The notes below the pieces were generated by a model. That model ran no database searches. It saw nothing but the letters and a program-made list of their open reading frames with translations, and was not told the origin of the DNA. Made by a program: the position numbers and the translations under genes. This document shows, in pieces, positions 4,510-36,940 of a DNA stretch of 64,000 bases. The stretch covers positions 62,001 to 126,000 of the forward strand of contig NTKC01000001.1 of assembly GCA_002456995.1 (NCBI GenBank). The letters are read 5' to 3'. This DNA is from Candidatus Thioglobus sp. MED-G25 (GTDB lineage: Bacteria; Pseudomonadota; Gammaproteobacteria; Arenicellales; UBA868). Position 1 is the stretch's first letter, and every line of letters starts with the position of its first letter.

Positions 4510-4659
4510 TTAGCGCCTTTTCTTAGCTGCTTTTTTCTTAGTTGCTTTTTTCTTAGTTGCTTTTTTCTTAGTTGCTTTTTTCTTGGATGCTGCTTTTTTC
4601 TTAGTTGCTTTTTTCTTGGATGCTGCTCGTTTCTTCGTGGCTTTTTTCTTTGCTGCCAT
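4510..4659 (-). CDS. Histone H1-like lysine/alanine-rich peptide (49 residues)
   Basis: A 49-residue reading frame made almost wholly of Lys, Ala and Thr/Ser with a few Arg at the ends. It starts MAAKKKATKKRAASKKK and then repeats KKKAT/KKKAAS blocks to a KKRR end. The ATG at 4659 is preceded by an AGAGGAAA ribosome site. A near-consensus promoter lies about 180 bases upstream and a terminator follows, so it looks like a real, expressed single-gene unit despite its size. The composition matches bacterial histone H1-like tails (AlgP/Hc1 type), which bind nucleic acid through charge. A chromatin or RNA-binding role is inference from composition. The C-terminal tail of Adk at 35.7 kb has a closely similar composition but a different repeat unit. 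Confidence 0.75.
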   Translation of the reverse strand: MAAKKKATKKRAASKKKATKKKAASKKKATKKKATKKKATKKKAAKKRR

Positions 4660-33274: not shown

Positions 33275-34540
33275 TCAAAGGTTGAAAGTGTTTGCCAGTT
33301 TCCTTTTAACCGGTGTGTTCTTCAATCGCACATATTGCGGTAAGCCCTGACGGTATGGCGGATAGTCTTCCCCAGCGATTAGAGGCATCAGGTACTGTCG
33401 GCATCTGGCCGTAATGCCAAAACCGTTGCGACTGATGAAACTGCGGGGCATCTTTTTTTCCCGGTTTGCAACTCGGTTTAAGTCTGCCTCGCCAATCGTC
33501 CAGCGATAGGGAGAGTTTGATATCCGTACTATAGTTGGCATAACGGCGTTCTTGCCGGCTAGAGCGAATTCAACCGCCGCACGGCCGGTGGCATAGGCCT
33601 GGTCGACGTCGGTTTTGGAGGCGATATGGCGGGCAGCACGCTGAAGATAGTCAGCAACCGCCCAGTGGTACTTCAGCCCAAGGTCATCGCGGATCATTCC
33701 GGCGACGACTGGCGCCACACCACCGAGTTGCGTGTGGCCAAATGCATCTTTGAGGCCCTGGTCAGCTAGGAAACGGCCAGTCGCGTCGCGTGCGCCTTCC
33801 GACACAACGATTGAACAGTAGCCAAAACGCTTAATCTTGCGGGTGACTGCAGCCGTAAAGCTTTCGCGTTCAAAAGGAATTTCCGGGAACACGATGAGTA
33901 TTGGAATTTCGATTTTTCGGTCCGACGCCATCCCGCCCGCTGCAGCAATCCAGCCAGCGTGTCGACCCATGACTTCAACGATAAAAACTTTGGTTGATGT
34001 TTTGGCCATGGAGGCCACGTCAAAACTGGCTTCACGCGTGGAGACGGCGATGTACTTGGCAACGGAACCGAATCCTGGGCAATTGTCGGTAATCGGCAGA
34101 TCGTTATCCACAGTCTTGGGAATGTGTATGGCCTGTATCGGATAGCCTTTTGTTCTGGCAAGTTGAGAGATCTTAAGGCAGGTGTCGGCAGAATCGCCCC
34201 CGCCGTTGTAGAAGAAATAACCAATGTTGTGCGCCTTGAAGACTTCGATGAGTCGTTCATATTCGGCTGCACTCTCAGCAAGGCTCTTGAGTTTGTAGCG
34301 GCAGGAACCGAATGCGCCAGCGGGGGTGTGGCGCAGTGCTGTAATAGTGGCCTTTGATTCACGACTGGTGTCAATGAGATCCTCGTTTAATGCACCGATG
34401 ATACCGTTGCGGCCCGCATAGACCTTACTGATCTGTTGTCGATTACTCCGTGCCGTCTCTATCACACCACAGGCTGAAGCGTTGATTACAGCGGTGACAC
34501 CGCCGGACTGTGCATAAAACGCATTTTTGCCTTGGGTCAT
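33275..34540 (-). CDS. Diphosphate-dependent 6-phosphofructokinase
   Basis: Phosphorylates fructose 6-phosphate with diphosphate, reversibly. The type is shown by GGGDSADT (residues 113-120), where the ATP form has GGDGS, and by PKTVDNDLP (141-149), where the ATP form has PGTIDND. The 421 residues are in the range of the long bacterial PPi-PFK group. No ATP-type phosphofructokinase gene is seen in the window. It precedes the cbbQ-type gene and is divergent from adk across 321 bases. Confidence 0.93.
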   Translation of the reverse strand: MTQGKNAFYAQSGGVTAVINASACGVIETARSNRQQISKVYAGRNGIIGALNEDLIDTSRESKATITALRHTPAGAFGSCRYKLKSLAESAAEYERLIEVFKAHNIGYFFYNGGGDSADTCLKISQLARTKGYPIQAIHIPKTVDNDLPITDNCPGFGSVAKYIAVSTREASFDVASMAKTSTKVFIVEVMGRHAGWIAAAGGMASDRKIEIPILIVFPEIPFERESFTAAVTRKIKRFGYCSIVVSEGARDATGRFLADQGLKDAFGHTQLGGVAPVVAGMIRDDLGLKYHWAVADYLQRAARHIASKTDVDQAYATGRAAVEFALAGKNAVMPTIVRISNSPYRWTIGEADLNRVANREKKMPRSFISRNGFGITARCRQYLMPLIAGEDYPPYRQGLPQYVRLKNTPVKRKLANTFNL

Positions 34541-34861
34541 GGTCTTTTCCTTAATGATGAAATTGATTGGGCTATCAAGTACGACCGTTGGAAATCAAGT
34601 ATAGCGATACTCGTAATGTTGCCGTGCTGGCAACCGATTTTTACCCCGCTGGAACGCAATCTGATCGCCGATCGCGCTGGTCATTCAACATTATATTGGC
34701 AGCGGCAACCAATGGAACCTGCGAATATATTGACAGATGGAGAAACGGAACTATAGTAAGCGCCCCGATTTTTCATCGAGCGGAGAGATTTGATAGTTAG
34801 GGCTGTTGAGATTTCGGCTTGGTATTTGTTGATAAAACACCAGTAAAACAAGGATTCTGGA
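34541..34861. other. Intergenic region between pfp and adk
   Basis: No gene is visible. It holds the adk promoter at 34730-34757 and a leader of about 98 bases. The frames open across it on the plus strand look non-coding, and I see no hairpin of note. Promoters for the PPi-phosphofructokinase gene on the other strand could not be picked with confidence. Confidence 0.45.
34730..34757 (+). promoter_or_regulatory. Sigma-70 promoter of adk
   Basis: TTGACA at 34730-34735, 16 bases, TATAGT at 34752-34757. The pattern is the same as at the 49-residue lysine-rich gene. It lies about 105 bases before the adk ATG. Confidence 0.7.
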
Positions 34862-35938
34862 ATGAGAATAGTGCTGTTGGGTGCGCCGGGTTGCGGAAAG
34901 GGAACTCAAGCCAAATTAATGGCTGAGAAATACCGAGTGCCACAGATCTCCAGTGGAGAACTTCTTCGACAGGCAGTGTCAGAGAAAACGGATCTGGGTA
35001 AACGGGTTGAATCGATCATGGCGTCTGGCGAACTGGTATCGGACGATATCGCAACCGACGCTGTAACGGAACGGCTTCGTAGCAATGAAAGCAAACGAGG
35101 GTTTGTCCTGGATGGCTTTCCCCGCACGATCCCCCAGGCTCAGCAACTCGATACTCGTTTGGGCTGGATGAACCGGCCGCTACAGCTAGCTCTGTATTTT
35201 TCGCTCGACCCAGCAGTGGTTGTGAAGCGAGCCCTTGGACGCCTGGAATGCGCAAAATGCGGCGCATCATACAATCGATATTTCTCGCCGCCAGCCAAAC
35301 GCGGAATCTGTGAACACTGTGGTTCAAAAGAGCTTGTTCAACGACCGGATGATCATCAGCACGCAGTACGCGCACGCTTGGACGCTTACGACCGGGATAC
35401 AGTGCCACTGATTACGTATTTCAAGGCCCAGCACAAATTACGTACTGTCGAGGGAGAGGGCGATATTCAGGATATTTTTAAACGGATATGTGAGATCGTA
35501 GACACTGAGATTCGACCTCTGGAGACGAAAGTAATCGCGATAGAAACCGGTCGTGAGTATCGATCCGATGCTGTAACGTTGATCAGTGGCGGTAAGGTGG
35601 TTCGAAAAGACAGTCGTGCTGACAATGACAAAGCTGTTGGTCAGGCGAAGCAACGCTTATCTGCTAGGGACTCTAAAAAAGCTGCCGAGAAGAAGGTTGC
35701 CAAGAAGAAAGTAGTTAAGAAAAAAGCTGCCGAGAAGAAGGTTGCCAAGAAGAAAGTAGTTAAGAAAAAAGCTGCCGAGAAGAAGGTTGCCAAGAAGAAA
35801 GTAGTTAAGAAAAAAGCTGCCGAGAAGAAGGTTGCCAAGAAGAAAGTAGTTAAGAAAAAAGCTGCCAAGGAGAAAGCCGTCAAGACAAAAGTGGTGGTAC
35901 GGAAATCTGCGACCAAAAAACGCACACACAAGGGCTGA
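34862..35938 (+). CDS. adk: Adenylate kinase with a lysine-rich, histone H1-like C-terminal tail
   Basis: The N-terminal 215 residues are a complete adenylate kinase (2 ADP to ATP plus AMP): P-loop GAPGCGKGTQ (7-16), GELV, FPRT and a zinc-type LID with cysteines 130, 133, 150 and 153. E. coli Adk stops there at 214. Here a linker (about 216-270) is followed by a tail of about 85 residues: four exact copies of AAEKKVAKKKVVKKK and a worn fifth copy, ending in a Lys/Arg/Thr-rich segment. The kinase active site is intact. The tail should bind DNA or RNA by charge; what it does for the enzyme is unknown. It is transcribed alone or with hemB, six bases downstream. Confidence 0.93.
   Translation: MRIVLLGAPGCGKGTQAKLMAEKYRVPQISSGELLRQAVSEKTDLGKRVESIMASGELVSDDIATDAVTERLRSNESKRGFVLDGFPRTIPQAQQLDTRLGWMNRPLQLALYFSLDPAVVVKRALGRLECAKCGASYNRYFSPPAKRGICEHCGSKELVQRPDDHQHAVRARLDAYDRDTVPLITYFKAQHKLRTVEGEGDIQDIFKRICEIVDTEIRPLETKVIAIETGREYRSDAVTLISGGKVVRKDSRADNDKAVGQAKQRLSARDSKKAAEKKVAKKKVVKKKAAEKKVAKKKVVKKKAAEKKVAKKKVVKKKAAEKKVAKKKVVKKKAAKEKAVKTKVVVRKSATKKRTHKG
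35681..35905 (+). repeat. 45-bp tandem repeat encoding the Adk tail
   Basis: Four copies of a 45-base unit (35681-35725, 35726-35770, 35771-35815, 35816-35860) are identical base for base; a fifth (35861-35905) has diverged. Each unit encodes 15 residues, AAEKKVAKKKVVKKK. Exact identity in third positions points to recent tandem duplication, and copy number may vary or be wrong in an assembly. Confidence 0.97.
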
Positions 35939-35941
35939 TAA

Positions 35942-36940
<999 letters not shown>

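What the first reader, a model, noticed from the sequence alone, without database searches (positions are those of the whole stretch)
35510..35938. Adenylate kinase carrying a histone H1-like lysine-rich tail
The Adk core is complete by about residue 215, yet the frame continues for 140 residues, ending in an 85-residue block of almost only Lys, Ala, Val and Glu. Such a basic tail is known from histone H1-like proteins, and is not part of Adk. It would tie a nucleotide-balancing enzyme to DNA, RNA or the nucleoid. I know of no general description of this fusion. The frame is intact and the active site is whole, so it should be expressed.
Basis: partly seen in the sequence, partly recalled or inferred. 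Interest (0 to 1): 0.8.

Follow-up and report, generated by a model that had tools for sequence, protein, structure and literature searches.

The report
Adenylate kinase with histone-H1-like tail
In a gammaproteobacterium, and in dozens of related bacterial families, the enzyme adenylate kinase carries a long lysine-rich tail that resembles the tail of histone H1, is predicted to bind DNA or RNA, and would tie the cell's energy-nucleotide balance to its chromosome.

Summary
Confirmed and extended. ORF 34862-35938 (+) is a complete tetracysteine-LID adenylate kinase (residues 1-215) followed in frame by a 47-residue linker and a 96-residue tail (43 Lys, net +41) with four exact 45-bp repeats. 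It is not an assembly quirk: all three same-genus genomes have it, and the order's clade on the core tree holds 53 tailed and 1 untailed sequence. Basic tails occur in 47 family codes among the sequences I read. Lys+Arg content does not follow GC (rho -0.06, n=116) while codons do (rho 0.81), so selection acts on the protein. In the order a short motif, T-[VI]-I-[AS]-G-G-x-[IV]-x-[RK], follows the core by about 25 residues (36 of 53 linkers; 0.2 expected); function unknown. Most likely mechanism (inferred): the tail holds the enzyme on nucleic acid, most simply the nucleoid, as Lys-rich tails do in TopA, PhaF and AlgP. A polyphosphate tether is unlikely: PPK1 in 1 of 33, PPK2 in 0 of 33 genomes of the family. 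The window also encodes a free 49-residue H1-like protein; in one distant family the tail opens with its own RBS-like site and ATG. I found no published description in my searches. Nothing was tested at the bench.

The parts
34730..34757 (+). sigma-70-like promoter, TTGACA-16-TATAGT, 11 of 12
   Evidence: one found, 1.2 expected in shuffles, so weak by itself
34850..34854 (+). ribosome-binding-site-like AAGGA before the adk ATG
   Evidence: match of 5 to AAGGAGGT
34862..35506 (+). adenylate kinase core, residues 1-215, with P-loop GAPGCGKGT, DGFPR and a C130/C133/C150/C153 LID
   Evidence: Pfam ADK and ADK_lid over cut-off; TIGR01351 222.9 vs 168 bits; most of these residues invariant or nearly so in alignments; only Adk match in the genome
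35507..35647 (+). linker, residues 216-262, predicted disordered from 228
   Evidence: AlphaFold2 pLDDT under 50 for residues 228-271
35576..35605 (+). conserved linker motif TLISGGKVVR, residues 239-248
   Evidence: 36 of 53 order linkers match [VILT][ASIVT]GGx[VI] vs 0.21 expected, pattern written after reading the sequences; third codon positions vary
35648..35935 (+). lysine-rich H1-like tail, residues 263-358, net +41
   Evidence: weak HC2 match 19.9 bits
35675..35854 (+). four exact 45-bp tandem copies coding 15-residue units of the tail
35945..36940 (+). hemB (delta-aminolevulinic acid dehydratase), 6 bases after the adk stop
   Evidence: ALAD 444 bits; found beside 43 of 53 tailed order loci
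33275..34540 (-). phosphofructokinase-family gene, divergent neighbour
   Evidence: PFK 158.9 bits; found beside 32 of 53 tailed order loci
4510..4659 (-). free 49-residue H1-like protein MAAKKKATKKRAASKKK..., net +28, with RBS-like agaggaaattaact

Best explanation
This is the only adenylate kinase found in this genome, with a C-terminal histone-H1-like tail that is predicted to bind nucleic acid without sequence preference and would hold the enzyme on the nucleoid (or on RNA). Shown from sequence: an intact core, a linker with a conserved short motif in this order, and a strongly basic tail kept across many families. Inferred: the tail is flexible, folds partly into helix on a polyanion, and concentrates the reaction 2 ADP = ATP + AMP where AMP and ADP arise from DNA- and RNA-bound work. 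Also inferred: repeat number in the tail sets the strength of binding, and the linker motif is a docking site for an unknown partner.
For: The core is intact and gives the only PF00406 match in the genome, which is 86% complete. Tail net +41 on a near-neutral core, +5; median charge of the extension +53 over 116 sequences, the window's included. On the core tree the order's clade of 54 rows holds 53 tailed and 1 untailed sequence (L069, f3); over all 144 rows the tail label needs 6 changes against 19.9 for shuffled labels, 0 of 500 as low. Basic tails (30 residues or more, K+R at least 15%) occur in 47 family codes. K+R fraction is flat over GC3 0.24-0.97 (rho -0.056, p 0.55) while tail GC3 follows core GC3 (rho 0.81), n=116: the protein, not the DNA, is kept. 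Order-wide linker motif: 36 of 53 against 0.21 expected. AlphaFold2 models of the window protein and of relative P0146 give a firm core and a mostly low-confidence extension; the window model has one helix at 274-313. Lys-rich tails bind DNA in AlgP and PhaF (PMC9239181, abstract and passages; PMC3574117, passages) and hold TopA on DNA (PMC7398561, passages); lysine-rich low-complexity regions are enriched in DNA-binding bacterial proteins (PMC6821194, passages). Among window frames of 60 aa or more, adk alone has 11 or more Lys in any 40 residues, so it is not a habit of all proteins here; shorter frames were not scanned that way.
Against: No binding, localisation or expression data. The tail is absent from 11 of the 82 distinct class sequences read (one more, L154, is cut and was dropped) and from 10 Adk copies read in the order, so it is not needed for the enzyme. 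Some tails are poor in Lys: 4 of 53 order tails, all f8, have under 15% Lys. The HC2 and H1-like models stay below their cut-offs. Neither DNA nor RNA is favoured by the sequence. The linker motif is not predicted to be structured and is absent from f1-g4 (0 of 12) and from the wider class sample (0 of 68). One close copy, P0003, has a broken frame in the tail.
Confidence: 0.55

Rival explanations
1. The tail tethers the enzyme to polyphosphate (granules), as AlgP is tied to them, so that Adk and polyphosphate chemistry meet.
For: AlgP, an H1-like protein, sits on polyphosphate granules and needs its C-terminal repeats for spacing them (PMC9239181, abstract and passages). Families f4, f6, f7, f8 and f12 have both tailed Adk and polyphosphate kinases.
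Against: In the window's family f1, PPK1 is found in 1 of 33 genomes (G023) and PPK2 in 0 of 33, yet the tail is kept. The genomes are incomplete, but so many misses are hard to blame on that.
Confidence: 0.07
2. The tail is a former, or still active, separate H1-like gene fused to adk: in some lineages an internal start yields a free H1-like protein besides the fusion.
For: In family f76 (G172, G304, G407) a strong in-frame RBS-like AAGGAG(G) and ATG open the Lys-rich part. Matches of 6 or more: 3 of 17 Met codons that open a Lys-rich stretch against 1 of 587 core Met codons, Fisher p 7e-5. Free H1-like proteins with similar starts (MAAKKKATKK...) exist in 18 of 41 genomes searched, all of family f1, the window's genome included.
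Against: The three cases are one family, so not independent, and I noticed the pattern before testing it. True adk starts reach a match of 6 in only 4 of 148, so such sites are not how these genes usually start. The window's own linker and tail have no ATG and no RBS-like site before GTG or TTG. Similar starts may be convergent in low-complexity sequence.
Confidence: 0.2
3. The tail is a neutral product of repeat expansion with no function.
For: Exact 45-bp copies, varying copy number among close copies (P0001 4, P0002 2 units) and one frame-broken copy.
Against: Presence in 47 family codes, composition held constant over GC3 0.24-0.97, a conserved linker motif before it.
Confidence: 0.08
4. 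The extension is mainly a protein-docking device: the linker motif recruits a partner and the tail only adds solubility, charge or membrane contact.
For: Motif positions I241, G243 and G244 are invariant among 13 aligned order members chosen for having the motif. Other families have other short linker motifs: 10 of 68 with an EDL-type helix and 6 of 68 with an IRRAVA-type helix, 0.00 expected (patterns written after reading the sequences).
Against: The motif is missing in many tailed enzymes while the tail stays (0 of 12 in f1-g4, 0 of 68 in the class sample). No partner is known.
Confidence: 0.1

Closest known systems
AlgP (AlgR3) and phasin PhaF of Pseudomonas
   Same: Unrelated N-terminal part plus long, repetitive Lys/Ala-rich C-terminal tail, predicted or found disordered, that binds DNA (PMC9239181 and PMC3574117, passages).
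   Different: AlgP carries KPAA-type repeats with proline; the window's tail has no proline. Their N-terminal parts bind granules or are of unknown function; here it is a metabolic enzyme.
Actinobacterial topoisomerase I with C-terminal lysine repeats
   Same: An enzyme whose H1-like Lys repeats keep it on DNA (PMC7398561, passages).
   Different: TopA acts on DNA itself; adenylate kinase acts on free nucleotides, so the tail could only place it, not make it processive.
NCBIfam NF010381 / PRK13808 adenylate kinase (335 positions)
   Same: An Adk with a Lys/Ala-rich C-terminal tail; 7 of 299 genomes of the phylum sample are over its cut-off, all in family code f220, tails read in L180-L186.
   Different: Core without the tetracysteine LID; the window protein scores 156 against a cut-off of 426; a lineage outside the class.
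Chlamydial Hc2 and H1-like DNA-binding proteins (PF07382, NF038053)
   Same: Lys-rich H1-like composition, size variation by repeat number (PMC2848022, start of abstract in listing).
   Different: Free proteins without an enzyme; the window tail stays below both cut-offs.

Membership tests
Adenylate kinase (TIGR01351, PF00406) | Whole-protein score over curated cut-off | tested here: met
   222.9 vs 168 bits; 151.8 vs 26.8 bits
Adenylate kinase (TIGR01351, PF00406) | Catalytic residues: P-loop, DGFPR, LID arginines | tested here: met
   present, and mostly invariant or nearly so in 13 and 48 aligned relatives; their catalytic role is recalled, not from a call
Adenylate kinase (TIGR01351, PF00406) | Phosphotransferase activity | not testable with these tools
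   needs assay
NF010381/PRK13808 long adenylate kinase | Score over the equivalog cut-off | tested here: not met
   156.2 vs 426 bits
Histone H1-like Hc2 (PF07382) / NF038053 | Score over curated cut-off | tested here: not met
   19.9 vs 40 bits; 20.0 vs 80 bits
H1-like basic tails (AlgP/PhaF/TopA type), as a functional kind | Long Lys-rich, low-acid, repetitive C-terminal region | tested here: met
   96 residues, 43 K, 4 R, 6 D+E
H1-like basic tails (AlgP/PhaF/TopA type), as a functional kind | KPAA-type repeat with proline (AlgP, PhaF) | tested here: not met
   no proline in residues 263-358
H1-like basic tails (AlgP/PhaF/TopA type), as a functional kind | Disorder without ligand | tested here: inconclusive
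   pLDDT under 50 for 228-271 and 315-351, but a helix at 274-313 with block means of about 57-83
H1-like basic tails (AlgP/PhaF/TopA type), as a functional kind | Binding to DNA or RNA | not testable with these tools
   needs binding assay

The most novel reading that the evidence does not exclude
Across much of the Gammaproteobacteria the adk gene is a two-in-one gene: it makes the cell's energy-charge enzyme and, as its tail, an H1-like nucleoid protein (in some families also released from an internal start). Adenylate kinase would thus be a chromatin-bound enzyme, and the ATP/ADP/AMP balance would be set, and perhaps read, at the nucleoid, with lineage-specific linker motifs as docking sites.
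Probability: 0.15. Interest if true: 0.88.

Novelty: new variant of a known kind. Interest (0 to 1): 0.62.

Why it matters
Adenylate kinase is a textbook soluble enzyme. That it carries an H1-like tail in dozens of gammaproteobacterial families means that a metabolic enzyme may be tied to a polyanion in a large group of bacteria without being noticed in the literature I could search. If the tail binds the nucleoid, local regeneration of nucleotides near transcription and replication becomes a testable question, also in the named species Thiogranum longum (that it is cultivable is recalled).

Tried and rejected
Internal start at the motif: the SGGxV codons could be an RBS plus GTG, but the glycine and valine/isoleucine codons vary freely and no RBS-like site precedes GTG/TTG in the window: rejected for the window.

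AT-rich or GC-driven repeat: composition does not follow GC: rejected.

Motif packing on the core: two AlphaFold2 models leave it at low confidence: no support.

Polyphosphate tether: see rivals.

Rfam: no family at gathering score in the window. PHROGs: only weak kinase matches. Solved structures: of 86 matches the best 60 were shown; they are 187-245 residues long and none of their best stretches goes past residue 214 of the query, so none of those 60 has this tail.

Literature searches for a tailed Adk: searches gave no description that I saw in the listings; one listed paper (PMC3574117) names adenylate kinase only in its reference list. Searches were for background. The library holds open-licence papers only.

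Full report
WHAT IS THERE. The frame 34862-35938 (+) encodes 358 residues without a break. Residues 1-215 are a complete adenylate kinase (TIGR01351 222.9 vs 168 bits; Pfam ADK and ADK_lid) with the four cysteines of a metal-binding-type LID (role recalled) and catalytic residues that are mostly invariant or nearly so in relatives. It is the only PF00406 match in the genome (86% complete). Residues 216-262 are a linker, net +1; residues 263-358 are a tail with 43 Lys, 4 Arg and 6 acidic residues, net +41. DNA of the tail holds four exact 45-bp copies, 35675-35854. A promoter-like site lies at 34730-34757 (one found, 1.2 expected) and hemB starts 6 bases after the stop. The nearest named records are gammaproteobacterial or proteobacterial metagenome bins, two at 96% Adk identity (L038, L039).

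IT IS NOT AN ARTEFACT. Of 41 genomes (own plus 40 relatives) 36 gave an Adk match, and of 109 genomes of the order 97 did. G001, G002 and G003 of the same genus have Lys-rich tails. Of 66 distinct order sequences read, 53 are tailed by my rule (30 residues or more, K+R at least 15%), 10 untailed, and 3 are cut before the tail (L020, L027, L045); the tailed ones come from families f1, f4-f9 and f12. Four of the 53, all f8, have under 15% Lys. The untailed are in f2, f3 and f11 and as other-type copies in f7, f8 and f9; for f10 I have only open-frame lengths. Metagenome proteins agree: of the 120 listed relatives 119 have 70-186 residues beyond position 215 and one (P0087) has 5. Against: P0003 is frame-broken inside the repeat, and P0002 (240-member cluster) has 2 repeat units where the window has 4.

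HOW WIDE. In the class sample 341 of 369 genomes had a match at E 1e-30. Of 133 matches of at least 235 bits, own excluded, 80 have an open frame of 290 or more (numbers typed by hand; two genomes appear twice). This is a proxy: of those 80 I read 69, of which 67 are tailed and two, G330 and G439, are not; 11 were not read. I fetched 80 class stretches, chosen mainly for long frames plus short-framed controls, and read 89 loci including seven duplicates: of 82 distinct, 70 are tailed (among them two short tails of 38-44 residues in f130), 11 untailed, and L154, cut by its contig end and poor in Lys, was dropped. Together with the order the tree has 144 rows, 123 tailed and 21 untailed; the label needs 6 changes, shuffled mean 19.9, 0 of 500 as low; starred branches force only 2, and gain cannot be told from loss. 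The order's clade has 54 rows, 53 tailed and one untailed on a long branch (L069, f3). The tail is seen in 47 family codes, its absence in 15, with 3 in both. Because of the biased choice, 47 is a count, not a rate. Named carriers: Thiogranum longum (372 aa) and a Solemya pervernicosa gill symbiont (418 aa); Thiogranum is a gammaproteobacterium. A hemB or phosphofructokinase neighbour was found in 51 of 53 tailed order loci and in 26 of 70 tailed class loci, many of the latter short stretches with little flank.

SELECTION ON THE PROTEIN. Over 116 tails, the window's included (those with fewer than 30 residues beyond the first 30 of the extension, or with X, were dropped), the Lys+Arg fraction does not change with GC3 of the core (rho -0.056, p 0.55; GC3 0.24-0.97) while GC3 of the tail does (rho 0.81); AAG use follows too (rho 0.43). 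Median net charge of the extension is +53. The sequences are related, so the p value is only a guide.

LINKER MOTIF. About 25 residues after the core, 36 of 53 order linkers carry [VILT][ASIVT]GGx[VI] (0.21 expected from shuffling each linker; the pattern was written after reading the sequences): f8 19 of 19, f7 4 of 4, f5 2 of 2, f4 1 of 1, f6 1 of 1, f1 9 of 24 (f1-g4 0 of 12); f9 and f12, one sequence each, lack it; the class sample has 0 of 68 (two of 70 were too short to count). In the window it is TLISGGKVVR. Codons vary, so it is kept as protein. In other families other motifs appear: an EDL-type helix in 10 of 68 and an IRRAVA-type in 6 of 68, also described after reading. Models of the window protein and of P0146 leave the motif at low confidence.

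MECHANISM. From the anatomy, the tail most likely binds nucleic acid by charge. Precedents: AlgP and PhaF tails bind DNA and place granules (PMC9239181, abstract and passages; PMC3574117, passages); Lys repeats hold TopA on DNA (PMC7398561, passages); Lys-rich low-complexity regions are enriched in DNA-binding proteins and poly-Lys peptides also bind RNA (PMC6821194, passages). The step from binding to function, namely local recycling of AMP and ADP, is my inference. DNA and RNA cannot be told apart here; I commit to the nucleoid because the precedents are DNA and because the same genome encodes a free H1-like protein.

POLYPHOSPHATE. The AlgP paper suggested to me a polyphosphate tether. PPK1 is in 55 of 109 and PPK2 in 65 of 109 genomes of the order, but in family f1 only in 1 of 33 and 0 of 33 (f1 counted). 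The tail is kept in f1, so polyphosphate is not likely its general ligand.

A FREE H1-LIKE PROTEIN AND A NESTED START. The window encodes a 49-residue protein, MAAKKKATKKRAASKKK..., net +28, at 4510-4659 (-) with an RBS-like sequence. Relatives of it are found in 18 of 41 genomes, all in f1, at places other than adk; 16, the window's included and some cut by contig ends, are readable with a Met start. In class family f76 the Lys-rich part of Adk itself opens with AAGGAG(G) and an in-frame ATG (L087, L125, L136). Strong RBS-like matches (6 or more): 3 of 17 Lys-opening Met codons against 1 of 587 core Met codons, p 7e-5, but the three are one family and the idea came first. With the looser match of 5 or more the contrast is 4 of 17 against 23 of 587 (p 0.005); over all tail and linker Met codons it is 7 of 117; true adk starts reach 5 in 22 of 148 and 6 in 4 of 148. 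This suggests, but does not show, that the tail came from an H1-like gene. The window lacks such a site.

NOVELTY. NCBI has an Adk model with a Lys/Ala-rich tail from another lineage (7 of 299 phylum genomes over its cut-off, all f220), whose core is of another type, so such fusions probably arose more than once. No paper listed by my searches appeared to describe a tailed Adk. I therefore call it a new variant of a known kind: H1-like tails on proteins are known; on this enzyme and at this breadth they seem undescribed.

CHECK.

Noticed in passing
window 4510-4659 (-): A 49-residue free H1-like protein with RBS-like agaggaaattaact and a GC-rich inverted repeat followed by T after its stop; not in Pfam or PHROGs at E 0.01; relatives in 18 of 41 genomes, all family f1.
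   Followed up: partly
L087, L125, L136 (family f76): Strong in-frame RBS-like sequence and ATG open the Lys-rich tail of Adk, a possible nested H1-like gene.
   Followed up: partly
L095, L117, L123, L124, L128, L141, L147, L148, L152, L153 and f134, f92, f164 loci: Family-specific helical linker motifs (EDL-type, IRRAVA-type) between Adk core and tail.
   Followed up: partly
L162, L163 (family f130): Short 38-44 residue tails, richer in Arg, instead of long Lys tails.
   Followed up: no
G030, G032, G081, G084, G093, G096: Genomes with both a tailed and an untailed Adk.
   Followed up: no
L110, L142, L149 (families f60, f149): Tails with lower Lys content that end in a charged, coiled-coil-looking segment.
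   Followed up: no
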